Assembly: GCF_010672085.1 (NCBI RefSeq) | Contig: NZ_JAAHHT010000053.1 | Span: forward strand, 1 to 45,749 | DNA length: 45,749 nt | DNA from: Okeania sp. SIO3I5 | GTDB taxonomy: Bacteria > Cyanobacteriota > Cyanobacteriia > Cyanobacteriales > Microcoleaceae | Reading direction: 5' to 3' | Shown here: piece by piece, positions 5,311 to 30,432 of the stretch | Numbering within the stretch: position 1 is the first letter of the stretch | Layout: the number at the start of each line of letters is the position of its first letter | The notes under the pieces: model-generated | Seen by the model: only the letters and a program-made list of their open reading frames with translations | The model's database searches: none | Told to the model about the DNA's origin: nothing | Made by a program: the position numbers and the translations under genes

Positions 5311-5818
5311 TCATCCACAGGCATTCACGATCGAGCCGACCGCATCTCTCAAATTTATACTGGCGTTTAAATCTCTATCTATTGATCGGCCACACTCTGG
5401 GCAATCATAAGTTCTCGCATTTAATGGCATATCTTGGACGTGACCGCAGTTAGAACAAGTCTTTGATGATGGAAAAAATCTATCAACGACTACTAATTCA
5501 GAGCCGTACCACTGAGTTTTATATTCTAGTTGACGCCTGAACTCATAAAATACTTGATTTGCTATAGATTTACCTAGTTTACGGTTAGCTAACATTCAAT
5601 TAACGTTTAAGTCTTCTATGACAACTGTGCCGTGGTTTTTGGCTAGTATGTTGTCAATTTATGAAGTGCGTCTTTACGGATGTTTCGCTGCGCGACATGA
5701 AAAGCTACTTTTGTGTGTAGCTTGGCAATTTTAAGTTGTGCTTTTCGCCAATTAGCTGAACCAATATCTTGATTCCGGTTTAGATATTAAGTTTGAGTTT
5801 GGTACGAATTGATTTCAT
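5311..5818 (-). pseudogene. tnpB (IS605 OrfB) remnant with internal deletion and stops
   Basis: Minus-strand remnant of an IS200/IS605 TnpB. The C-terminal 94 residues (5311-5595) are intact in frame and show the zinc ribbon CSNCGH...CPECGR and the last RuvC aspartate in DRDLNASINL. Upstream the reading continues as ANWRKAQLKIAKLH, IRKDALHKLTT and VVIEDLNV. It is cut by TAG after LTTY and by TGA just before MLANRKLG. The N-terminal MKSIRTKLKLN (ATG at 5818) joins straight to this part, so roughly 200 central residues are deleted. The element left end follows to about 5870. It should be inactive. Confidence 0.8.
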
Positions 5819-5940
5819 CTATGGGTGAGTGCAGTCTATCAATAGTATGCGTTTTTACGATAATTGATTTGATTTTTTATTGTTGGAGATGTCTAATTAT
5901 GATTTCAGACACTCCAACAACAATTTATGCTTAACTTGGT

Positions 5941-6034
5941 AATATCAAATCCGTCTAATTGTATATACTTCCAATTACCTTACGAATGGGATTTTAGCCT
6001 ACTGATCGTGAGGTTGTTTAAACGGATTTGACAT
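5941..6034. repeat. Mini inverted-repeat element, family M3 (copy 1)
   Basis: The left end ATATCAAATCCGTCTAA (from 5942) is matched by TTTAAACGGATTTGACATA at the right end (to about 6034). A second copy with better ends is at 39545-39689. It is non-coding. Confidence 0.5.
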
Positions 6035-6068
6035 AATGTAGTTTTTCTTATTTTCACTGCTAATCTTT

Positions 6069-6175
6069 TTACAGCGCTTTTCAGATTGATGAACCACATC
6101 GTCATAACCAAAACCTCGTAGGGATGTTCCATGGAACGTCCCTACTGTGGTTTACTGAAATGAAAACTGCTGTAA
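6069..6175. repeat. Mini inverted-repeat element, family M1 (copy 1)
   Basis: 107 bp with ends TTACAGCGCTTTTC (6069) and GAAAACTGCTGTAA (to 6175). In the centre is a second palindrome, GTAGGGATGTTCCATGGAAC plus GTCCCTAC. Related copies are at 29012-29188, 29743-29850, 30158-30266, 34641-34759 and 44673-44778. It is the most common MITE-like family of the window. Confidence 0.7.
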
Positions 6176-6229
6176 AAAATTCCACACTCTAAAGTAATTA
6201 GTAATTCTCCTTTGAGGAAATACCGGATG

Positions 6230-6376
6230 ATATCATGTCCGCTGGTATCGTTTGTGTAAACCAAAGGGTGAATTTTACCGGAAATTTAAGTTTTTTTCTT
6301 CCTCTTAAGTATTCTTCCTCCCTGTTCCCTGTTCCCTACCTTTGCTATACAATACCGATGCTACCGGACATGATAT
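6230..6376. repeat. Mini inverted-repeat element, family M2 (copy 2)
   Basis: The left end ATATCATGTCCG (6230) and the right end CGATGCTACCGGACATGATA plus T (6356-6376) are inverted relative to each other and match the element at 1706-1831. A short CCTGTTCCCTGTTCCC run lies inside. The right end supplies the last codons and stop of the minus-strand ORF at 6361. Confidence 0.6.
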
Positions 6377-6711
6377 GAGTTGCCATTAATTGGGTTAATT
6401 ATCTTGTACCAGTACCTGCCAGAATTATCCATTTCAATCATAACTTCAGTACCTTCTCCAACTCCAATCCTCCTGTAATATTTGATCTTGTATACCTTAC
6501 CAGTCTTCTGTGAAACTACAACAGCCTCACATATACTGGAGCCGCCTAAACCTCTTCTGAAAACAAAAGGCACTGTTTGGTTAGCCAATGCTCATTGAGC
6601 AAACATGGTAACAGTTGGCACTGCAATTAACAAAGGTATAGCTACATTAGAAGAAAGTGCTAACAAAGAAGATGCTGCAAAAGATTTGATTTGTTTAATG
6701 ATAGTTTTCTC
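6361..6711 (-). pseudogene. Small secreted-protein gene with a stop at the signal cleavage site
   Basis: I do not recognise the family. The downstream frame (6361-6588) encodes about 75 aa, beginning ANQTVPFVFRRGLGG and including VSQKTGKVYKIKYYRR. Directly upstream in the same frame lies a Sec-type signal peptide, IKQIKSFAASSLLALSS then NVAIPLLIAVPTVTMFAQ. It is separated by a single TGA at 6592-6594, right where signal peptidase would cut (FAQ-stop-ALANQ). The upstream part also lacks a normal start codon (ATT at 6699), so two lesions are present. The last codons (YHVR, stop) lie in the right end of an M2 mini-element, so the original C-terminus was probably replaced. A TTG at 6588 could start a cytoplasmic version, but no ribosome-binding site supports it. 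Confidence 0.5.
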
Positions 6712-17875: not shown

Positions 17876-17986
17876 TTTGTTTCTATAGGCAGTAGATCAT
17901 CACAAAAGAATATTTATTCGCACTTAAGCTTGACTGACGATAACTTCAGTTAATTTGTGCTGTTTGGTTGTGGGAAATCGTCATTT

Positions 17987-18017
17987 CAGTTATCAGTTAT
18001 CAGTTATCAGTTATCAG
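17987..18017. repeat. GTTATCA heptamer repeat
   Basis: Four to five tandem copies of the 7-bp unit GTTATCA, a simple STRR between the HTH gene and the toxin-antitoxin pair. Confidence 0.7.
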
Positions 18018-18138
18018 TACCTCTTACTTCAGTAGGAGGCTGGAAATATTAAAGTTGATTTTTTTCATCTCCTTGTAGAGCGACAGCTCGTGGCGAAGTC
18101 AAGAGAAGGCTTAAGACCTTATTTTCTGGTAACAATAT

Positions 18139-18242
18139 TAGACCTCTCCGGAAAAGAGGGAACACTTAACTGGGAACAGGAAGAAGTAATTGATAATTTC
18201 TGGATAAGAATTGATTCTATTTTTAATTTTCGGAGATGTCTA
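18139..18242. repeat. Mini inverted-repeat element, family M4 (copy 1)
   Basis: The left end TAGACCTCTCCGGAAAA (18139) and the right end TTTTCGGAGATGTCTA (to 18242) form imperfect inverted ends. The interior AATTGATAATTTCTGGATAA is shared with 22383-22506 and, more weakly, with about 28475-28540. GGGAACA-type repeats lie inside. Confidence 0.55.
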
Positions 18243-18388
18243 TTATAGCGAAATACGGTTTTCTAGGTCATGCGGAGCAAACAGTTAAGACGAAAACTCA
18301 TAAGATATAGAACCATTAGATAGGCTTTTCAGACTACAAAACTGCCAAAAAAATCCTCAACTGAACTGTATTGATTTATAATGGATAG

Positions 18389-18424
18389 TAAGCATTCAGC
18401 CGTTAGCTAATAGGTGAATGCTTA
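18389..18424. repeat. Inverted repeat at the antitoxin start
   Basis: TAAGCATTCA (18389-18398) pairs with TGAATGCTTA (18415-18424). The same palindrome type, AGCATTCAGCCGTTAGCTAA, is dispersed in the window. It overlaps the first in-frame ATG (18418) of the antitoxin ORF, so that ATG is unlikely to be the real start. It could be only a mobile palindrome or a site for autoregulation. Confidence 0.5.
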
Positions 18425-18429
18425 CGTTA

Positions 18430-18726
18430 ATGTTTAATTTAAAAAATGATATGACCGACCATTCACTCACAGATTTCCAGGATAACCCGAAGTATTTTGT
18501 AGAACAAATTAAAGAAACACAAAAACCTATAGTCTTGACAGTTAATGGTAAAGCAGAGCTAGTGATTCAAGATGCAATTGCCTATCAAAAATTAGTGGAA
18601 AGATTAGATTATGCTGAATCAGTAGCGGCAATTCGCCAAGGAATAACAGAATTTGAACAAGGTAAGGGAAAACCTGCCCGTTTTGCATTAGCAGAATTAA
18701 GAAAAAAACATGATATTTCAAGTTGA
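18430..18726 (+). CDS. Phd/YefM-type antitoxin
   Basis: 98 aa from ATG 18430 (another ATG at 18451; the one at 18418 lies in a palindrome). The N-terminal HSLTDFQDNPKYFVEQIKET then QKPIVLTVNGKAELVIQDA is the Phd/YefM DNA-binding and dimerisation fold, and EFEQGKGKPARFALAELRKK is the toxin-binding tail common in cyanobacterial Phd proteins. It overlaps the following ParE/RelE toxin gene by 17 bp, the standard arrangement of such operons. It should bind its own promoter together with the toxin. Confidence 0.85.
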   Translation: MFNLKNDMTDHSLTDFQDNPKYFVEQIKETQKPIVLTVNGKAELVIQDAIAYQKLVERLDYAESVAAIRQGITEFEQGKGKPARFALAELRKKHDISS

Positions 18727-19015
18727 AATTTCTCCATCTGCTTTATCTGATGCAGAAAATGTCTTTTTGTGGATTCAACAACAAAATCTTCAAAAAGCTT
18801 CGGAATGGTATAATGGTTTCGTAGATGCAATTTTGTCTCTAGAAACTTTCCCGAACAGATGTACGATTGCTCCTGAGAGTGCTGATGTTGGTAGAGAAAT
18901 TAGGCAATTGATTTACAATAAACACCGGATTTTGTTTGTAGTCAAAGAGCAGGTTGTACAAGTCTTAAGAGTCAGACATACTGCACAGGATTCTATTTCA
19001 ATCGATGACTTATAA
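18710..19015 (+). CDS. ParE/RelE-family toxin
   Basis: 101 aa, typical size. The pattern FQVEISPSALSDAENVFLWI, then a helix with QKASEWYNGFVDAILSLETF, PNRC.IAPES, then REIRQLIYNKHRILFVVKEQ and VVQVLRVRHTAQD matches the RelE/ParE fold. The closing VLRVRH motif is characteristic. Partner of the overlapping Phd antitoxin. Whether it cleaves mRNA (RelE) or hits gyrase (ParE) cannot be told, but the WYNGFVDAI helix leans towards ParE. No lesion is seen. Confidence 0.85.
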   Translation: MIFQVEISPSALSDAENVFLWIQQQNLQKASEWYNGFVDAILSLETFPNRCTIAPESADVGREIRQLIYNKHRILFVVKEQVVQVLRVRHTAQDSISIDDL

Positions 19016-19130
19016 TACCAATTTGCTAAACCAGTAGGGGGGCAAATAGCCCCTACAATTTGTTGATACTTTCCAATTTTTCAAGTTGATTTTTTAGAGA
19101 CTGAATGTATCAGGAAATATAAAAAGGAGA

Positions 19131-19221
19131 TAGGGAACAGGGAACACTTAACTGGGAACACTTAACTGGGAACAGGGAATAGGGAATAGGGAATAGGGAA
19201 TAGGGAATAGGGAATAGGGAG
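19131..19221. repeat. GGGAACA/GGGAATA heptamer repeat
   Basis: A run of GGGAACA units broken by two CTTAACT units, then about seven GGGAATA units. It is an STRR between the toxin gene and the NB-ARC pseudogene. Confidence 0.8.
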
Positions 19222-19352
19222 AAAGAAATCAAGACAAGTATTAAAGAGTTAAAATAAAGGGAATAGATATACCTTTCCACCTAATCAATCTACCAAATTT
19301 TAATCTCTTGAAGTACCTTTTACTTTTAGATTTTAGTCACTCAATAACTCTC

Positions 19353-20919
19353 TTAAGACTTATTTTGCAAACAGTTTATTAAGTATTGTTTCCAGACAGA
19401 ATTAAGAGTAAATACTGTCAAATTATTCTCTAATTGTCTATCTAATAATAATCGGTTTTTCAGGGATTGAATTAAGTTGACAGATTCCTGAATGGATAGT
19501 TGTAATTTGCTAATTATTTCTCCTATTGAAATAGGTTGATCTTGGTTAGCAACTTGTTCCATAATTCTGATTTCCACAGGAGATAAACGTTGCAATTGTT
19601 GTTCTAATTCTGCTTGTAATGCTTCTGGTAAAATTAGGGTTTCATATTCTATAAATTCTGCTACTTGACCGCTAAATAATTCTTGAATTGTTGTTGCTGT
19701 CATATCTAACCATCGGGGATTTCCTTGATAATTATTAATCAATTTTTCCCAGAATTCTCGATCTGCTAATTGGTGTTTTTGGCAGATTTTTTGAGCAGCA
19801 ATTCCTAAACTTCCTAAAATTAAGGTTCGTACTGGATAATTTTCTGTTTCTAATTTGATAATTTCTGGGATTTTTTCTCTACTTATTAACAGTAAAGAAC
19901 TCTGATGGGAGACTGTGACAAGTAGTTGAAAAAAATCTTGATAATCTTCGTAACCAGATTTATATTGACCTGCAAGTTTTCCAGGAGCAAATAATTTTTG
20001 TACGTCATCAAATATGATGCAGCAACGATATTTTTCTAGATATTTTTGGAGTTTTGATAATAGGGTTTCGATATTGTCGGAAGTTTCTGTTTCTGGTGCA
20101 AAAATTTGCAAGAGGTTAGTAATAGTTTGGGTGAGAGTGGGAGAAAAGCGAAGGGTTCGATAAATGATGTAATTAAACGTAGGGGTTTGGTCTCTAAATC
20201 CATTTATTTCCTCGGTAAAATTCGTAGGGGTTTGGTCTCCAAACCCATTTATTTCCTCAGTCAAATTCGTAGGGGTTTGGTCTCCAAACCCATTTATTTC
20301 CTCGGTAAAATTCGTAGGGGTTTGGTCTCCAAACCTATCTTGGTTTCCCACAAACCCATTTTCTCTCAACCCATTTATTTCCTGAATTAATTTTAGAGAA
20401 AGACTTGTTTTGCCAATACCACTTATTCCTAAAAGGGAGATGACACGGAGGCGATCGCTTACTATCCATTTTGATAAGGTGGAAAGTTCGTTTGTACGAC
20501 CATAAAAGTTGATAATTTCTCGTGCTTTGTCTAGGTCGATAATATTTTGAGTTGGTTTTTGTTGAGAGTTGGTTTTTGTTGGGGAAACGCCAGGGTTTGA
20601 CGGACAAATATTGATATTACTTGTGACCTTATCCTTACAAAAAACTGGCGCAAAATTGTAAATATTTGCATTTTCTAATATTGTTCTAAAATTTGCTTTG
20701 GTAATATTTTCACCGAGTATTTCCGATAAAGTTTTCTATAATTTAGAACCGATATACTTAACATGAGTTTCGCGCTTCGTAAGTTTCCTCAGCAATTTTT
20801 TTGTAAGTCTGATTTTCTAAAGTGCGTTGCAATATCGTTTTTTGCAGGTAGTCTAAATTTTCCCCAGTATGGTCATAAATTAGCTCTTCAGCTAACTTTA
20901 AGATTTCTTGAATATTCAT
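19353..20919 (-). pseudogene. NB-ARC ATPase with N-terminal HTH, broken near the start
   Basis: Minus-strand gene of the cyanobacterial HTH-plus-NB-ARC type, usually the sensor/ATPase part of larger STAND proteins. It begins at ATG 20919 (MNIQEILKLAEELIYDHTGE, then TILQRTLENQTYKKIAEETY). It suffers a one-base frameshift near 20795 and then a TAG where the family has Trp (GSKL-stop-KTLSEILGE). After that it is open to the end: YGRTNELSTLSKWI, P-loop LLGISGIGKTSLSL and the Walker B-type CCIIFDDVQKLF. The usual sensor (LLISREKIPEII) and winged-helix parts follow, ending with no WD40 or TPR sensor. Between P-loop and the RTLRFSPTL strand is an in-frame 15-aa tandem repeat (see 20178-20335). A product from TTG 20369 would lack the P-loop. 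Confidence 0.8.
20178..20335 (-). repeat. 45-bp tandem repeat inside the NB-ARC gene
   Basis: Three full units and one partial unit of 45 bp. On the minus strand they encode about four copies of the 15-residue unit EEINGFGDQTPTNFT. The core, GTAGGGGTTTGGTCTCCAAA, is the same palindromic sequence found in intergenic DNA at about 44791-44819 (TTTGGAAACCAAACCCCTAC). The length is a multiple of three, so the frame is kept. Confidence 0.85.
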
Positions 20920-21089
20920 AAATCTGTAGACATATTATATTTATATAGTGCTATTATATCTACTAATTGTTAAGTATTCCCCTGGCAATGACAAGCAGGC
21001 AACATTTGTCAGACCCATTTGAACTGGCTCGATTTACAGGTTATTAAGACTTACTCAGCAATTTACTAACAACATAAACATAGAGAATA
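20920..21089 (+). promoter_or_regulatory. Intergenic region between divergent genes
   Basis: 170 bp between the start of the broken NB-ARC gene (minus) and the lectin-RTX gene (plus). TATATTTATATAG near 20936-20949 could supply -10 elements in either direction. No strong ribosome-binding site precedes ATG 21090 (nearest purine stretch AGAGAA at about 21081). Confidence 0.3.
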
Positions 21090-22316
21090 ATGACTAAATT
21101 CAGTTTTAAGAATTTCAGTAATCCATTAAAGGTAAGCTTGAATGGGGATGCTCGCCTCACCAATGATGTGTTGCGTCTTACCAACGGTGGTGGTTGGGAA
21201 GCAGGTAGTGCTTTTTATTCTAAGCCTATTCCTATGAAAGACAAGACCTCTTTCAATACCCACTTTCAGTTTCAACTTCATAATAGTAATGGTTCCGAAT
21301 CAGGACGTGAAGGTTTTGTTTTTATGCTGCATAAAGACAGTAAAGCGGCTCAATCTCTAGGTTCCAATCGCAGTGGGTTAGGCTACAGAGGTATTTCTTC
21401 AAGCATTGCTATAGAGTTTGATACTGACCAAGACAACTCTTTCGATCCTAATGACAATCATATTGGTTTAAATTCTGGTGGATCTATTGAGTCTAAAGTG
21501 ACAAGTACCCCAGATTTAGACTTAAATAGTGGAAATATTATTAATGCCTGGATTGATTATAATGGCAACAATGATCAGCTGAATGTATTTGTATCTGAAA
21601 CCTCAAAAAAACCGAAAAAACCTGCTTTTTCTACATTTACTAATATTATAGGAGGTGAAACAACCGTTCATGTCGGATTCAGTGCAGCAACAGATGGTAG
21701 CTTTATGGGTGTTGACAACAACATCCACGACGTCCTCACATGGGAATTCTCTACATCTGACAGCAATACAAGCAAACTCGGTAAAAACATCAACGGTAAT
21801 AATAGAAACAACCGACTCCAAGGAACAAATAAAGGCGAACGCATTAATGGTAAAGGTGGCAACGATGTCTTAACTGGTAGAGGAGGGAATGACACATTAA
21901 CAGGTGGTGGCGGTAGAGACACCTTAACTGGCGGATCAGGCAACGATGTCTTAACAGGTGGTGGCGGTGCAGATGACTTTATTTTAGGTAGTGGCAAAGT
22001 TTACAAGAAAAAAGATGTAGGCATAGACATCATTAAAGACTTTCAACGCAATATTGACGATATAATTCTTGATACTGACACATTTACGACTCTCAAAAGT
22101 GAATTAGGAGAAGGGTTCAGTATTAGGCGAGAGTTTCAAGCAGTTAACAGAAAAAATGCCGTTGCCAACTCCAGAGCAGATATCGTATACGATCGCTCTA
22201 CCGGAGATTTATATTACAATGCCAATGGTTCATTAGCTGGTTTTGGAGGTGGCGGAAAAATTGCCACATTAGAAGGTGCGCCTAGAATTAGTGCGTCTGA
22301 TTTTGTCTTGGAATAA
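21090..22316 (+). CDS. Secreted L-type lectin with RTX calcium-binding repeats
   Basis: 408 aa. Residues about 1-221 read as a bacterial L-type (legume-lectin-like) beta-sandwich, with the metal-site segment IAIEFDTDQDNSFDPNDNHI (about 107-126) and VHVGFSAATDGSFMGVDNNI near 193-212. Residues about 251-297 are five to six RTX nonapeptides (GGNDVLTGRGGNDTLTGGGG), followed by a C-terminal segment (DIIKDFQRNIDDIILD, ending SASDFVLE) typical of type I secretion targeting. There is no N-terminal signal peptide, as expected for type I substrates. It probably binds glycans outside the cell when Ca2+ is present. No transporter genes lie nearby. Its 3' end faces the large 9-bp array. Confidence 0.88.
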   Translation: MTKFSFKNFSNPLKVSLNGDARLTNDVLRLTNGGGWEAGSAFYSKPIPMKDKTSFNTHFQFQLHNSNGSESGREGFVFMLHKDSKAAQSLGSNRSGLGYRGISSSIAIEFDTDQDNSFDPNDNHIGLNSGGSIESKVTSTPDLDLNSGNIINAWIDYNGNNDQLNVFVSETSKKPKKPAFSTFTNIIGGETTVHVGFSAATDGSFMGVDNNIHDVLTWEFSTSDSNTSKLGKNINGNNRNNRLQGTNKGERINGKGGNDVLTGRGGNDTLTGGGGRDTLTGGSGNDVLTGGGGADDFILGSGKVYKKKDVGIDIIKDFQRNIDDIILDTDTFTTLKSELGEGFSIRREFQAVNRKNAVANSRADIVYDRSTGDLYYNANGSLAGFGGGGKIATLEGAPRISASDFVLE

Positions 22317-22382
22317 TCGGTAATAGCGATCGTCGTACAATGGGTAGGGGCGCGTCAAGCTGAAAATGGTGTATTAAATTTT

Positions 22383-22506
22383 TAGACATCTCCGGAAAAG
22401 AGGGAACAGGGAACAGGGAACAGGGAACAGGGAACAGGGAACAGGAAGAAAGAATAGATAATTTATGGATGAGAATTGATTTGATTTTTAATTTTCGGAG
22501 ATGTAT
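22383..22506. repeat. Mini inverted-repeat element, family M4 (copy 2)
   Basis: TTAGACATCTCCGGAAAAG at the left end and TTTTCGGAGATGTATT at the right. The inside holds five GGGAACA heptamers and the shared GATAATTTATGGATGAGAAT segment. Same family as 18139-18242. Confidence 0.6.
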
Positions 22507-22610
22507 TTTGAGTATAATTCTTGCTATGACAAGGTTTGGAGAATTTTTCTCAAACACTATTTCACGCTTGACGCGCCAGTAGGGGCGAATAGCCATTCGC
22601 CCCTACAATC

Positions 22611-25600
22611 GAAACTTCTGAGACTTCTGAGACTTCCGACACTTCTGAAACTTCCGACACTTCTGAGACTTCCGACACTTCTGAAACTTCCGACACTCCC
22701 GACACTTCTGAGACTTCCGACACTTCTGAAACTTCCGACACTCCCGACACTTCTGATACTCCCGACACTTCTGATACTCCCGACACTTCTGATACTCCCG
22801 ACACTTCCGACACTCCCGACACCTCCAACACTTCCGACACTTCCGACACTCCCGACACCTCCAACACTTCCGACAGTTCTGACACCTCCAACACTCCCGA
22901 CAGTTCCGACACTTCTGAGACTCCTGACACTCCCGATGCTCCCGACACTTCTAACGGTTCTGACACTCCCGACACTTCTGAGACTCCCGAGAGTTCCGAT
23001 AGTTCCGACACTTCCGACACTTCCGATAGTTCCGACACTTCCGACACTTCCGATAGTTCCGACACTCCCGACACTCCCGACACTTCTAACGGTTCTGAGA
23101 CTTCCGACACTTCTGAGACTCCCGACACTTCCGACACTCCCGACACCTCCAACACTTCCGACAGTTCTGACACCTCCAACACTCCCGACACTCCCGAAAC
23201 TTCCGACACTCCCGACACTCCCGACAGTTCCGACACTTCTGAGACTCCTGACACTCCCGACACTTCTGAGACTTCCGACACTTCTGAGACTCCCGACACT
23301 TCTAACGGTTCTGACACTCCCGAGAGTTCCGATTTGAGAGTTCCGACACTTCCGATAGTTCCGACACTTGTGAGAGTTCGGAGAGTTCCGACACTCCCGA
23401 CACTCCCGACGGTTCGGAGAGTTCTGACACTTCCGACACTCCCGACACTTCCGAGAGTTCTGAGACTTCCGACACTTCTGAGACTTCCGACACTTCTGAG
23501 ACTTCCGACACTTCTGAGAGTTCCGAGAGTTCCGACACTTCTGAGAGTTCTGAGAGTTCCGAAACTTCTGAGAGTTCCGAGAGTTCCGAAACTTCTGAGA
23601 GTTCCGAGAGTTCCGAAACTTCTGAGAGTTCCGAAACTCCCAACACTCCCGAAACTCCCGAAACTCCCAACACTCCCGAAACTCCCGAAACTCCCAACAC
23701 TCCCGACGCTTCTGACACTCCCAACACTCCTAACACTTCTGACGCTTTCGACACTCCCAACACTCCCGACGCTTCTGACACTCCCAACACTCCTAACACT
23801 TCTGACGCTTTCGACACTCCCAACACTCCCGACGCTTCTGACGCTTTCGACACTCCCAACACTCCCGAAACTTCTGACGCTTCCGAAACTTCTGATACTC
23901 CCGACACTTCCGACACTCCCGACACCTCCAACACTTCCGACAGTTCTGACACCTCCAACACTCCCGACACTCCCGAAACTTCCGACACTCCCGACACTCC
24001 CGACACTTCCGAAACTTCTGAGACTCCTGACACTCCCGATGCTCCCGACACTTCTAACGGTTCTGACACTCCCGACACTTCTGATACTCCCGACACTTCT
24101 AACGGTTCTGACACTCCCGACACTTCTGATACTCCCGACACTTCCGACACTCCCGACACCTCCAACACTTCCGACAGTTCTGACACCTCCGACACTCCCG
24201 AAACTTCCGACACTCCCGACACTCCCGAAACTTCCGACACTTCTGAGACTCCTGACACTCCCGATGCTCCCGACACTTCTGAAACTTCCGACACTCCCGA
24301 CACTTCTGATACTCCCGACACTTCTAACGGTTCTGACACTCCCGACACTTCTGATACTCCCGAGAGTTCCGATAGTTCCGACACTTCCGAGAGTTCCGAT
24401 AGTTCCGACACTTCCGACACTCCCGAGAGTTCCGATAGTTCCGACACTCCCGACACTTCTAACGGTTCTGAGACTTCCGAGAGTTCTGAGAATTCTGACA
24501 CTTCCAACACTTCCGACACTTCTAACGGTTCTGAGACTTCTGAGACTTCCGGAACTTCCGACACCTCCGACACCTCCGACACTTGTGAGAGTTCCGACAC
24601 CTCCGACACCTCCGACACTTGTGAGAGTTCCGACACTTGTGAGAGTTCGGACACTTGTGAGAGTTCGGAGAGTTCCGACACTCCCGACACTCCCGACGGT
24701 TCGGAGAGTTCTGACACTTCCGAGAGTTCCGACACTCCCGACGGTTCCAACACTTCCGAGAGTTCTGAGACTTCCGAGAGTTCTGAGACTTCCGAGAGTT
24801 CTGAGACTTCCGAGAGTTCTGAGACTTCCGAGAGTTCTGAGACTTCCGAGAGTTCTGAGAGTTCCGAGAGTTCCGAAACTTCTGAGAGTTCCGAGAGTTC
24901 CGAAACTTCTGAGAGTTCCGAGAGTTCCGAAATTTATGACACTCCCGAAACTCCCAACACTCCCGAAACTCCCGAAACTCCCGAAACTCCCGAAACTCCC
25001 GAAACTCCCGAAACTCCCAACACTCCTAACACTTCTGACGCTTTCGACACTCCCAACACTCCCGACGCTTCTGACACTCCCAACACTCCTAACACTTCTG
25101 AAGCTTTCGACACTCCCAACACTCCCGACGCTTCTGACACTCCCGACGCTTCTGACACTCCCGACGCTTCTGACACTCCCAACACTCCTAACACTTCTGA
25201 AGCTTTCGACACTCCCAACACTCCCGACACTTCCGACACTCCCGACACCTCCAACACTTCCGACAGTTCTGACACCTCCAACACTCCCGACACTCCCGAA
25301 ACTTCCGACACTCCCGACAGTTCTGACACCTCCAACACTTCTGAGACTCCTGACACTCCCGACACTTCTGAGACTTCTAACGGTTCTGACACTCCCGAAA
25401 CTTCTGATACTCCCGACACTTCTGAAACTTCCGACACTTCTAACGGTTCTGACACTTCTGAGACTTCCGACACTTCTGAGACTTCCGACACTTCTGATAC
25501 TCCCGACACTTCCGACACTCCCGACACCTCCAACACTTCCGACAGTTCTGACACCTCCAACACTCCCGACACTCCCGACACTTCCGACACTCCCGACACT

Positions 25601-26562
25601 CCCGACACTTCTGAGACTCCTGACACTCCCGATGCTCCCGACACTTCCGACACTTCTGAGACTTCCGACACTTCTGATACTCCCGACACTTCTAACGGTT
25701 CTGACACTCCCGACACTTCTGATACTCCCGAGAGTTCCGATGTGAGAGTTCCGACACTTCCGATAGTTCCGACACTTGTGAGAGTTCGGAGAGTTCCGAC
25801 ACTCCCGACACTCCCGACGGTTCGGAGAGTTCTGAGACTTCCGAGAGTTCCGACACTCCCGACGGTTCCGACACTTCTGAGAGTTCTGAGACTTCCGACG
25901 GTTCCGACACTTCCGACGGTTCCGACACTTCCGAGAGTTCTGAGAGTTCCGAAACTTCTGAGAGTTCCGAAACTTCTGAGAGTTCCGAAACTTCTGAGAG
26001 TTCCGAGAATTCCGAAACTCCCAACACTCCCGAAACTCCCGAAACTCCCGAAACTACCGAAACTACCGAAACTCCCAACACTCCTAACACTCCTAACACT
26101 TCTGACGCTTTCGACACTCCCAACACTCCCGAAACTCCCAACACTCCCAACACTCCCGAAACTCCCAACACTCCCGAAACTCCCGAAACTCCCGAAACTC
26201 CCAACACTCCCGAAACTCCCAACACTCCCGAAACTCCCAACACTCCTAACACTTCTGACGCTTTCGACACTCCCGAAACTCCCAACACTCCCGAAACTTC
26301 TGACGCTTCCGAAATTTCTGAGAGTTCCGAAACTTCTGAGAGTTCCGAAACTTCTGACACTACCAACACTCCCGACACTCCCAAGACTCCCGAAATTTAT
26401 GACACTCCCGACACTCCCGAAATTTATGACACTCCCGACACTCCCGAAATTTATGACACTCCTGAAACTCCCGACACTCCTGAAACTTCTGACACTCCCA
26501 AGACTCCCGACACTCCCGACACTCCTGAAACTTCTGACACTCCCAAGACTCCCGACACTCCC
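22611..26562. repeat. 9-bp minisatellite array with higher-order structure
   Basis: About 3.95 kb of head-to-tail 9-bp units (main forms ACTTCCGAC, ACTCCCGAC, ACTTCTGAG, ACTCCCGAA, ACTCCCAAC, AGTTCTGAC). Unit variants occur in blocks that recur in the same order about every 1.1-1.3 kb. A: CACCTCCAACACTTCCGACA type. B: CTTGTGAGAGTTCGGAGAGT (near 23366, 24633-24664, 25777). C: ACTTCTGAGAGTTCCGAAAC. D: CCCAACACTCCCGAAAC with CTTCTGACGCTTTCGACAC. This gives three higher-order repeats, near 22.6-23.88, 23.88-25.22 and 25.22-26.3 kb. Long open frames appear in several frames on both strands only because 9 is a multiple of three. Phase breaks at about 23335 and 25742 rotate the frames. It fills nearly the whole gap between two convergent genes. 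Confidence 0.9.
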
Positions 26563-26599
26563 CCACTACTAACAACCGAAAAATAACCTCCCTCCTCAA

Positions 26600-28339
26600 C
26601 TAAAACCCAATATCATCTAAAGCCACCTGAGCTGCTTCAAACAATTCATCATCAGAAACATACCGCCAATCTGTATCTCCAATTTCCTGATAAAAAGTCT
26701 GATCGTAAGCACGAGTCTGAATTACCACAGGCATCGGTACTGCATGACCTAATACCAACGCTTGCTGTTTAGAATCCAATTTTGCCAAAACAGACCGCAA
26801 ACTATGACCGCCAGAAACTCCCGTAAAAATAGAATCAATATCTTTATCATCATTCAACAGAGCGGTAATTCTCGTACCTATTTGAGACATAACTTCTGCA
26901 TCTATTCCGGAAGGTCGTTGATCTACCACCAATAAAGTCACAAAATACTTCCGCATCTCCCTAGCGATCGTACCAAAAATAGTTGAACGTACTATGGCAG
27001 GGTCGAGAAAACGGTGAGCTTCCTCAATAGTTATAACTAATGGTTGAGGGCGATCGCTCGGATTTTTAGAACTTAAAAATTTATCTGCTTTCCGCACATA
27101 ACTGTTATGAATTCGGCGAGTAATCATATTAGCTGCCAACATATAGGAAAGCATATTTGACTGGGAACCAAATTCAATAATAACGTGTTTTCCTGCATCT
27201 AAAGATTCTAATATTTCTTCTATATAATTATTCGTATTTTTTGTCTGCATATATTTCAGATTATCGAGTCGTAACAACTTTCTTTGCAACGACATAATTG
27301 AACCTTTATGACCTCTTTTTTCATCACAAAATGTTTGAATATCTTCATTAGTCATTGCCAATAATTGAGTAATCCAAGACTTACCAAATTCACTTCTGAG
27401 AATATTTGCACTATCAATACTTGCCTCAGACAAATTCAACTCCCGCTGCACCAACCCAATATCTTCAACCTCAATTTGGTTATAGCTAAGATACAATTCT
27501 CGTGCATCATGCACCCCTCTACGTTTAGTAGATTCTGGATCGAGCGTCCAAAGTTCGACTCGATCGGGAAATAATTGTCGTAAACCTTTTACAGTATTAA
27601 TTTGTTTTCCTTCTGCCATTGCTTCCCAACCATATTCCGAGTGCATATCAAAAATTAAATTTACCGCAGCACCTTTCCGAATAATGCCAGATAAAAGCAG
27701 ACGAGTCAGAAAAGATTTACCAGTTCCCGACTTACCAAAAATTCCATTACTTCGTTCTACAAATCTATCTAAATCTAAACAAACAGGTACATCCATATCA
27801 ATAGGTTTACCCACAGCAAAATTCCGCCGAGTCGGGTCGTCTTCCCTACCAAAAACTAGACTAAAATCTCTCACACTTGCTTCAAATACTTGGGAAAAAT
27901 GACTAGGAATAGTTTTCACAGGCATTAATTTAATTTCGGCACTGGTTTGAGCTTCAAAGGATGCTAAATTTTCGGTCGATTTTAATTTTTTTTGATTATC
28001 ATTTTTGTTGTTGAAATTGAAAGATTCTGGTAATTCTTCTGGAGCAATAATTAACATTAACATTGGAGCAAGTTCGATAGTTCCGTAGGTGCTACCTCCA
28101 GCTAAAACAGATTGCAAAAAATCATCTGTGGGTAGGGGAGGGTTAATCATTATTCGTTCGCTAGATGTTCCTAATAAAACATCGGTTAGCATACAGAAAA
28201 AATGGGCGCGTACTCCTTGTACGACTAAAAATTTGCCAACTCGCATATCTTCTACTAATATGTCTGGGTGGAGTCGTACTTCTAATCCTTGACTGAGAGA
28301 GCCTTGAATTACTGAGCCTAATGGTCTTTCAAAATCCAT
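26600..28339 (-). CDS. HerA-like/DUF87 ATP-binding protein
   Basis: 579 aa. The N-terminal ~90 residues (GSVIQGSLSQGLEVRL...) look like a HAS-barrel. The ATPase core has Walker A GKSGTGKS (202-209), the HerA-type FDMHSEYGW (about 230-238) after the first strand, and the Walker B-like LVITIEEAHRFLDP late in the protein, followed by LLVVDQRPSGIDAEVMSQIG. HerA proteins form hexameric DNA translocases, typically with the nuclease NurA. No NurA is near. The stop lies 38 bp from the end of the 9-bp array. The start at ATG 28339 fits conservation of the first residues. It is intact and is probably a core cyanobacterial gene. Confidence 0.85.
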   Translation of the reverse strand: MDFERPLGSVIQGSLSQGLEVRLHPDILVEDMRVGKFLVVQGVRAHFFCMLTDVLLGTSSERIMINPPLPTDDFLQSVLAGGSTYGTIELAPMLMLIIAPEELPESFNFNNKNDNQKKLKSTENLASFEAQTSAEIKLMPVKTIPSHFSQVFEASVRDFSLVFGREDDPTRRNFAVGKPIDMDVPVCLDLDRFVERSNGIFGKSGTGKSFLTRLLLSGIIRKGAAVNLIFDMHSEYGWEAMAEGKQINTVKGLRQLFPDRVELWTLDPESTKRRGVHDARELYLSYNQIEVEDIGLVQRELNLSEASIDSANILRSEFGKSWITQLLAMTNEDIQTFCDEKRGHKGSIMSLQRKLLRLDNLKYMQTKNTNNYIEEILESLDAGKHVIIEFGSQSNMLSYMLAANMITRRIHNSYVRKADKFLSSKNPSDRPQPLVITIEEAHRFLDPAIVRSTIFGTIAREMRKYFVTLLVVDQRPSGIDAEVMSQIGTRITALLNDDKDIDSIFTGVSGGHSLRSVLAKLDSKQQALVLGHAVPMPVVIQTRAYDQTFYQEIGDTDWRYVSDDELFEAAQVALDDIGF

Positions 28340-28593
28340 ATAAATTTCTTAATTATTTTGAGATCTTATATTAGGTTATACCATTTTTATTCAATAAGGA
28401 AGAAGTTTATTAATGGATAATGAATAATTAATAATTAATAATGGATCGTGAGATAATAGGGAATAGGAGACAAGGGGAAGTAATTGATAATTTACTGATA
28501 AGAATTGATTTTGTTTTTGATTTTCACCAGATATCTAATGAAAACTATCTCATTATCCATTATAATTACCTTATAGTGAATAAATATTGAAAT

Positions 28594-29446: not shown

Positions 29447-29742
29447 AGATTCTCTAAATTTTTGATATTTGACATTAGATATTTTACAGCGGTTTTCATA
29501 TGAATAAACCACAATGATACTGACTCCGATCCTCGTAACTCCGATCCTCGTAACAATTTATCTATTGTCCAATAGTTATTGCTCTGCTGACAAAGCGATC
29601 GCTATCTTTTGATGTTCTATTTATCTATTGTCCAATAGTTATTGCTCTGCTGACAAAGCGATCGCTATCTTTTGATGTTCTATTTATCTATTGTCCAATA
29701 GTTATTGCTCTGTTGAGAAAGCGATCGCTATCTTTTTATAGA

Positions 29743-29850
29743 TTACAGCAGTTTTCCTGCACGGTAGACCACAGTAGGGACGTTCCATGGAACGTTCCTA
29801 CAAGGTTTTGGTTGTGCTGGTGTGGTTCATCAATCTGAAAAGCGCTGTAA
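29743..29850. repeat. Mini inverted-repeat element, family M1 (copy 3, reversed)
   Basis: TTACAGCAGTTTTCCTGCAC at the left and GAAAAGCGCTGTAA at the right, with GTAGGGACGTTCCATGGAAC in the centre. It sits inside the 60-bp repeat array, in reverse orientation to the copy at 6069. Confidence 0.75.
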
Positions 29851-30157
29851 TGTTCTATTTATTGTCCAATAGTTATTGCTCTGCTGAGAAAGCGATCGCT
29901 ATATTTTGATGTTCTATTTATCTATTGTCCAATAGTTATTGCTCTGCTGAGAAAGCGATCGCTATATTTTGATGTTCTATTTATTGTCCAATAGTTATTG
30001 CTCTGCTGAGAAAGCGATCGCTATATTTTGATGTTCTATTTATTGTCCAATAGTTATTGCTCTGTTGAGAAAGCGATCGCTATATTTTGATGTTCTATTT
30101 ATCTATTGTCCAATAGTGATTGCTCTGTTGAGAAAGCGATCGCTATCTTTTTATAGA

Positions 30158-30266
30158 TTACAGCAGTTTTCCTGCACGGTAGACCACAGTAGGGACGTTC
30201 CATGGAACGTTCCTACAAGGTTTTGGTTGTGCTGGTGTGGTTCATCAAGAAAGAAAAGCGCTGTAA
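30158..30266. repeat. Mini inverted-repeat element, family M1 (copy 4, reversed)
   Basis: Nearly identical to the copy at 29743-29850, including the flanking repeat unit and a shared extra TATA before the left end. This indicates that element plus repeat units were duplicated together. Confidence 0.75.
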
Positions 30267-30432
30267 TGTTCTATTTATCTATTGTCCAATAGTTATTGCT
30301 CTGCTGAGAAAGCGATCGCTATCTTTTGATGTTCTATTTATCTATTGTCCAATAGTTATTGCTCTGCTGAGAAAGCGATCGCTATCTTTTGATGTTCTAT
30401 TTATAGCACTACGCAAATAGGTTAGGAAATTT

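What the first reader, a model, noticed from the sequence alone, without database searches (positions are those of the whole stretch)
22611..26562. 3.95-kb 9-bp minisatellite with three higher-order repeats between convergent genes
Seen: about 440 consecutive 9-bp units whose variants are arranged in the same block order (A, B, C, D) three times, with landmark blocks at about 23366/24657/25777 (CTTGTGAGAGTTCGGAGAGT) and at about 23640/24940/26030 (CCCAACACTCCCGAAAC). This nested structure is like satellite DNA of eukaryotes and far larger than the usual heptamer STRRs of cyanobacteria. Inference: growth by unequal exchange of ~1.2-kb segments, tolerated because it lies between the 3' ends of two genes. 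A role in transcription termination between convergent genes or in chromosome structure is possible.
Basis: partly seen in the sequence, partly recalled or inferred. Interest (0 to 1): 0.82.

Follow-up and report, generated by a model that had tools for sequence, protein, structure and literature searches.

The report
Giant nested minisatellite in a cyanobacterium
A stretch of about 4,000 bases between two genes of a Trichodesmium-like cyanobacterium is one 9-letter DNA word repeated about 440 times and arranged in larger blocks that are themselves repeated three times, a pattern better known from the satellite DNA of plants and animals; it is probably DNA that multiplied by itself and does nothing for the cell.

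Summary
Window 22611-26562 holds 440 consecutive units, all exactly 9 bp except two homologous 5-bp units. The variants form a three-copy higher-order repeat: the best unit-level self-alignment pairs 194 units, mean lag 135 units (~1.2 kb), score 258 against at most 14 (6 unit shuffles) and 37 (6 Markov chains). No 127-mer recurs in the array, so an assembly error is not the obvious reading; reads were not available.

The unit is a genome-wide family: 40 other places in the same genome match. Eight of those 40 lie in or at the end of a MITE that carries the 9-bp array inside; 65 end pairs of that MITE, 101-270 bp, were found, with exact 8-bp target duplications in 24 of 28 distinct copies examined. 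The giant array lacks the MITE ends, so descent from it is not shown. The array abuts the edge of an 8.6-kb segment absent at this place from three same-genus genomes.

Best explanation: inert minisatellite DNA grown by slippage plus duplication or exchange of ~1.1-1.3-kb blocks. Coding and terminator roles gained no support. New variant of a known kind.

The parts
22611..26562 (+). 9-bp minisatellite, 440 units; commonest units GACACTCCC (74), GACACTTCT (44), GAGAGTTCC (35); 53% GC in a 39% GC contig
22836..23902 (+). higher-order repeat copy 1 (about 1.07 kb, boundaries approximate)
23903..25225 (+). higher-order repeat copy 2 (about 1.32 kb, boundaries approximate)
25226..26310 (+). higher-order repeat copy 3 (about 1.09 kb, boundaries approximate)
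23331..23335 (+). 5-bp unit GATTT, breaks the register; counterpart in copy 3, none in copy 2
25739..25743 (+). 5-bp unit GATGT, homologous to the one at 23331
   Evidence: 93-bp exact match 23335/25743
17979..26591 (.). 8.6-kb segment absent at this place from G001, G003 and G004; the array abuts its right edge
22579..22606 (.). palindrome GTAGGGGCGAAtagccaTTCGCCCCTAC, ending four bases before the array
   Evidence: self-match
22386..22504 (.). MITE-like element, inverted ends ACATCTCCGGAAAA / TTTTCGGAGATGT, with an inner AGGGAAC heptamer array; further copies in the genome
21090..22316 (+). legume-type lectin with RTX repeats, 3' end towards the array
   Evidence: PF00139, PF00353
26600..28339 (-). 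HerA-like ATPase (HAS-barrel + DUF87), 3' end towards the array
   Evidence: PF01935, PF09378

Best explanation
A non-coding minisatellite, the longest one seen here of a genome-wide family of 9-bp repeats (CACACTTCC/GACACTTCC and variants). Shown: its size, its near-perfect 9-bp register, three higher-order copies, its absence from the herA side in the relatives examined, its place at the edge of a segment that three same-genus genomes lack, and a genome-wide family of which part rides on a MITE. Inferred: it began as a short array of the common unit, grew locally by replication slippage (runs of one-, two- and three-unit words), then by tandem duplication or unequal homologous exchange of blocks of about 1.1-1.3 kb, with later exchange between copies. 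It most likely has no product and no function for the cell, and is tolerated because it lies between two 3' ends in a lineage described as repeat-rich.
For: Higher-order structure above both controls. Exact repeats at many scales: 109 bp (23118/23897), 100 bp (23118/25220 and 23897/25220), 93 bp (23335/25743), and short lags of 18, 36, 63 and 99 bp. The 5-bp unit is in copies 1 and 3 but not 2, which points to exchange or an unequal duplication order. 40 further places in the genome match the array. In G004 the counterparts of window 17978 and 26592 are 12 bp apart; G003 keeps the left flank 43 bp from a copy of the herA 3' end, next to an IS605-type gene of its own; G001 keeps the left flank about 30 bp behind herA (83% over 47 bp). 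No array in 11 relatives' herA loci. Little sign of coding: the frame is broken twice; silent share of single-step unit variants 20 of 69, 19 of 69 and 8 of 69 in the three frames, expected 24%, 31% and 21%.
Against: One frame shows slightly more silent change than expected (29% vs 24%), and the 40 types of 9-bp unit come with only one kind of indel, present twice, which would also fit a selected register. The lowest fold energy (near 24587) is not reached in 60 unit shuffles, though 1 of 60 Markov chains reaches it, so a structural role is not excluded. Length rests on one assembly of unknown method. There are no expression data.
Confidence: 0.75

Rival explanations
1. Origin variant of the best explanation: the array was seeded by the nonamer-bearing MITE, of which one copy lost its inverted ends while its inner minisatellite kept growing.
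For: The MITE carries the same kind of unit: 21 of 28 distinct elements examined hold at least two adjacent units; 65 end pairs, 101-270 bp, median 138. Of the 40 other places that match the array, 8 lie in or at an end of this MITE.
Against: Neither MITE end is found at the array's edges: six comparisons, all scores below the shuffled means. The closest MITE array (L008, 111 of 126 bases) does not exceed 300 unit-shuffled controls (maximum 111). Of 38 arrays compared with 60 shuffles each, 3 (L004, L008, L017) were slightly above the maximum, which is weak. 32 of the 40 places show no MITE end by these tests, and 18 of 28 MITE copies hold a different 9-bp variant, CACACGGAC or CACACGAAC.
Confidence: 0.3
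2. Degenerate gene for a Thr/Ser/Asp/Pro-rich repeat protein, three residues per unit.
For: Open stretches of 1044 and 1082 codons in two + frames; ORFs 22501-23337, 23334-25745, 25742-26572; slight excess of silent variants in one frame.
Against: The - strand is as open (up to 1147 codons), as a stop-poor 9-mer would be; the register is broken at 23331 and 25739.
Confidence: 0.05
3. Functional intergenic element: two-way transcription stop, insulator, or nucleoid or partition site.
For: Position between two converging 3' ends; C-rich strand, GC skew -0.16 to -0.61 in 500-bp windows inside the array; low-energy folds near the block junctions.
Against: Not at this place in 11 relatives' loci; no terminator-like site; mean fold energy not below unit shuffles: 20 of 60 as low (+ strand only).
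Confidence: 0.12
4. Assembly artefact: a shorter array inflated by the assembler.
For: 562-contig assembly; several other arrays of the family stop at or near contig ends, such as C145, C248, C76, C6.
Against: Longest exact repeat 109 bp and no repeated 127-mer in the array; copies differ by substitutions and by missing units rather than being exact duplicates.
Confidence: 0.08

Closest known systems
BrickBuilt MITE/minisatellite of Porphyromonas gingivalis (PMC4596501; abstract and found passages seen)
   Same: Bacterial intergenic minisatellite; a minisatellite of variable copy number inside a MITE with inverted ends, as in the MITE family found here.
   Different: Unit 23 bp and at most 22.8 repeats there; here 9 bp, and 440 units with higher-order repeats in the giant array, which itself lacks MITE ends. 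Both BrickBuilt ends are intact in only 4 of 19 copies and its target duplications vary in length; here 24 of 28 distinct MITE copies examined have an exact 8-bp duplication.
Cyanobacterial heptamer repeats, GGGGA(C/T)T of Nostoc PCC 7120 (PMC4692102; found passages seen)
   Same: Dispersed short tandem repeats in a filamentous cyanobacterium.
   Different: Unit 7 bp and 39-179 nt there; here 9 bp, 3,952 bp and nested.
Eukaryotic satellite DNA with higher-order repeats, such as alpha satellite (recalled)
   Same: Diverged monomers in multi-monomer blocks that are themselves repeated.
   Different: One 4-kb array with three blocks in a bacterium; no centromere-like role known.

Membership tests
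Minisatellite | head-to-tail copies of one unit without spacers | tested here: met
   440 units in one register, two of them 5 bp
Satellite-type higher-order repeat | multi-monomer blocks repeated with the monomers in the same order, above chance | tested here: met
   score 258 vs at most 14.0 in 6 shuffles and 37.4 in 6 Markov chains
Satellite-type higher-order repeat | blocks more alike than the monomers within them | tested here: inconclusive
   aligned units 91-97.5% identical per base against 72% for random unit pairs, but the alignment itself picks like units and this was not controlled
Minisatellite-bearing MITE, applied to the giant array | terminal inverted repeats at the array's edges | tested here: not met
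Minisatellite-bearing MITE, applied to the other arrays | short element with inverted ends and a target duplication | tested here: met
   65 end pairs of 101-270 bp; arms match at 16-21 of 27 in 8 distinct arm pairs, no control run; exact 8-bp duplication in 25 of 30 rows, 24 of 28 distinct, vs 6 of 870 mismatched pairings
Minisatellite-bearing MITE, applied to the other arrays | moved by the transposase of a related full element | tested here: inconclusive
   no partner found; longest end pair 270 bp, 9 right and 19 left ends unpaired
Cyanobacterial heptamer STRR | 7-bp unit | tested here: not met
   unit is 9 bp
Length-polymorphic VNTR | length differs between isolates of the species | not testable with these tools
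   no second genome with the array was seen

The most novel reading that the evidence does not exclude
Birth of satellite DNA in a bacterium: a 9-bp word that is spread through the genome in part by a MITE escapes its carrier at one site and evolves true higher-order repeats by slippage plus kilobase-scale exchange, the steps proposed for eukaryotic satellites.
Probability: 0.3. Interest if true: 0.65.

Novelty: new variant of a known kind. Interest (0 to 1): 0.52.

Why it matters
[quoted passage not shown] abstract and found passages). Here one bacterial array reaches 440 units with nested order, and the same genome holds many short arrays of the same word. That would make the birth of higher-order repeats testable in an organism without meiosis or centromeres, and the MITE that carries the word gives a simple means of spread.

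Tried and rejected
Coding: not supported. RNA family: 0 matches at gathering scores in the window. Terminator-like sites: 0 in 21000-28500. RNA fold: 9 segments of 150 nt gave z-scores from -2.4 to +2.5; 270-nt windows of the + strand against 60 unit shuffles and 60 Markov chains gave no lower mean, but a minimum that no shuffle and 1 Markov chain reached. Conserved junction: 0 of 11 loci. Descent from the MITE array in L008: suggested by an 89% match, not above unit-shuffled controls. MITE ends at the array's edges: not found. Full transposon partner of the MITE: not found among nearest end pairs within 3 kb; a hypothetical partner with other ends was not sought. Printed descriptions: in the titles and abstract starts listed by searches (partial lists for 18, 28, 29, 50, 51 and 61) I saw no paper on higher-order repeats in a bacterium or on a nonamer-bearing MITE in Trichodesmium or Okeania. 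The library holds openly licensed papers only, and two Trichodesmium papers that I asked for are not held.

Full report
Setting. The window is the whole contig C479 of a 10.5-Mb genome in 562 contigs. No call names the window's own species.

The array. From 22611 to 26562 the sequence is 440 head-to-tail units: 438 of 9 bp, in 40 types, and two of 5 bp (GATTT at 23331, GATGT at 25739). The 5-bp units lie at matching places in the first and third higher-order copies; the second copy has none. Position 2 of the unit is nearly invariant, position 3 the most variable. The array is 53% GC in a 39% GC contig, C-rich on the + strand.

Higher-order structure. Aligning the string of units to itself gives 194 aligned units, 148 identical, at a mean lag of 134.8 units, and a second alignment of 97 units, 72 identical, at a lag of 266.9. 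Best score 258; 6 unit shuffles reach at most 14.0 and 6 first-order Markov chains at most 37.4. An earlier and cruder test was borderline: the longest exact run of units is 11, with up to 11 in 20 Markov chains and up to 5 in 20 shuffles. Smaller repeats lie inside the blocks (lags of 18, 36, 63 and 99 bp), so at least two scales of duplication acted.

Assembly. The longest exact repeat is 109 bp and no 127-mer recurs within the array, so long k-mers or long reads can resolve it. Other arrays of the family end at or near contig ends (C145, C248, C76, C6), so this one need not be the longest in the real genome.

Surroundings. A lectin/RTX gene and a HerA-like gene point towards the array. In G004 the counterparts of window 17978 and 26592 are 12 bp apart. 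In G003 the left flank lies 43 bp from a second copy of the herA 3' end, and between the two copies stands an IS605-type gene (PF01385, PF12323). In G001 the left flank is about 30 bp behind herA (47 bp at 83%). So 17979-26591, with the AAA-type gene, the lectin gene and the array, is probably an insertion in this lineage. None of 11 relatives' herA loci holds the array; for 10 of them the DNA held behind herA ranges from 0.7 to 14 kb.

The family. The array finds 41 places in its own genome, itself included (40 of 80 first-look candidates were scored); the next longest is 745 bp, at a contig end. In relatives 14 of 40 genomes match, own included (at most 7 candidates scored each); in the order 44 of 243, own included (2 scored each); an exact 33-bp pattern is in 4 of 195, own included. 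The longest match outside the own genome is 262 bp at 65%. For scale, 631 TRF rows in 80 other loci reach 439 bp at most.

The carrier. Seven arrays share the same left flank; six of them also share the right one, and the seventh (L003) ends with its contig. The shared flanks form imperfect inverted ends. In the own genome 74 right and 84 left ends were found, none with the reversed control pattern. 65 pair up into elements of 101-270 bp; 9 right and 19 left ends stay unpaired. DNA was fetched for 30 of the 74 right ends. The script saw 32 right ends there: 30 rows with both ends (28 distinct elements) and 2 without a left end, of which one has a diverged left end on inspection and one lies near the end of its DNA. 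The 8 bp on either side are identical in 25 of 30 rows (24 of 28 distinct), one base apart in 3 (2 distinct), unlike in 2; 6 of 870 mismatched pairings are identical. 21 of 28 hold at least two adjacent CACACTTCC-type units; 18 of 28 hold CACACGGAC or CACACGAAC variants; some hold both. The right end occurs in 10 of 61 genomes of the family, own included. This is a MITE with a nonamer minisatellite inside, comparable to BrickBuilt of P. gingivalis.

Is the giant array one of these? Of the 40 other places that match it, 8 lie in or at a MITE end: 7 by the end lists and L003 by its flank. The giant array's own edges carry neither end. Its likeness to the closest MITE array does not exceed unit-shuffled controls; of 38 arrays compared with 60 shuffles each, 3 were slightly above the maximum (arrays under 60 bp and repeat listings of the same loci were dropped). 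The link rests on the kind of unit only.

Mechanism. Shown: nested repeats at two scales and a mosaic pattern. Inferred: slippage for the small scale; duplication or homologous exchange for the large one. No function was found: no RNA family, no terminator-like site, no lower mean fold energy although the minimum is lower than in all 60 unit shuffles (1 of 60 Markov chains reaches it), little sign of coding, no conservation of place.

Literature. PMC9950141 calls Trichodesmium genomes large and repeat-rich (found passages). The abstract start of PMC4649490 in a search listing gives 40% non-coding DNA for Trichodesmium. PMC12699852 finds no expansion of short tandem repeats in bacteria (abstract and passages).

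Noticed in passing
own genome, 65 end pairs; e.g. L004, L008, L170, L177: MITE family of 101-270 bp with imperfect inverted ends (GGTAGTCCTGC... / ...GCACCACCACC), 8-bp mostly A/T-rich target duplications and an inner 9-bp minisatellite of variable length; its right end also in other genomes of the family, Okeania among them.
   Followed up: yes
window 22386-22504 and about 18135-18248: Second MITE-like element with inverted ends ACATCTCCGGAAAA / TTTTCGGAGATGT; the copy at 22386 holds an AGGGAAC heptamer array; further copies in the genome.
   Followed up: partly
L052 (G003) 5328-6701: IS605-type gene right behind herA, then a 78-bp copy of the herA 3' end; a similar copy of the herA 3' end is in G002. 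The herA 3' side may be an insertion hot spot.
   Followed up: partly
window 29556-30404: Direct repeats of 59-63 bp in three arrays (2.2, 2.9 and 5 copies) upstream of a histidine kinase gene.
   Followed up: no
window 18418-19015: Small gene pair; the first looks like a Phd-type antitoxin (20.5 bits, cut-off 20.8).
   Followed up: no
L007 about 526-996: Several 9-mer arrays alternate with exact copies of a 66-72-bp spacer, a compound repeat.
   Followed up: no
window 22611-26562: No GCGATCGC (HIP1) in the array, 30 in the whole window; about 2-3 would be expected by length alone.
   Followed up: no
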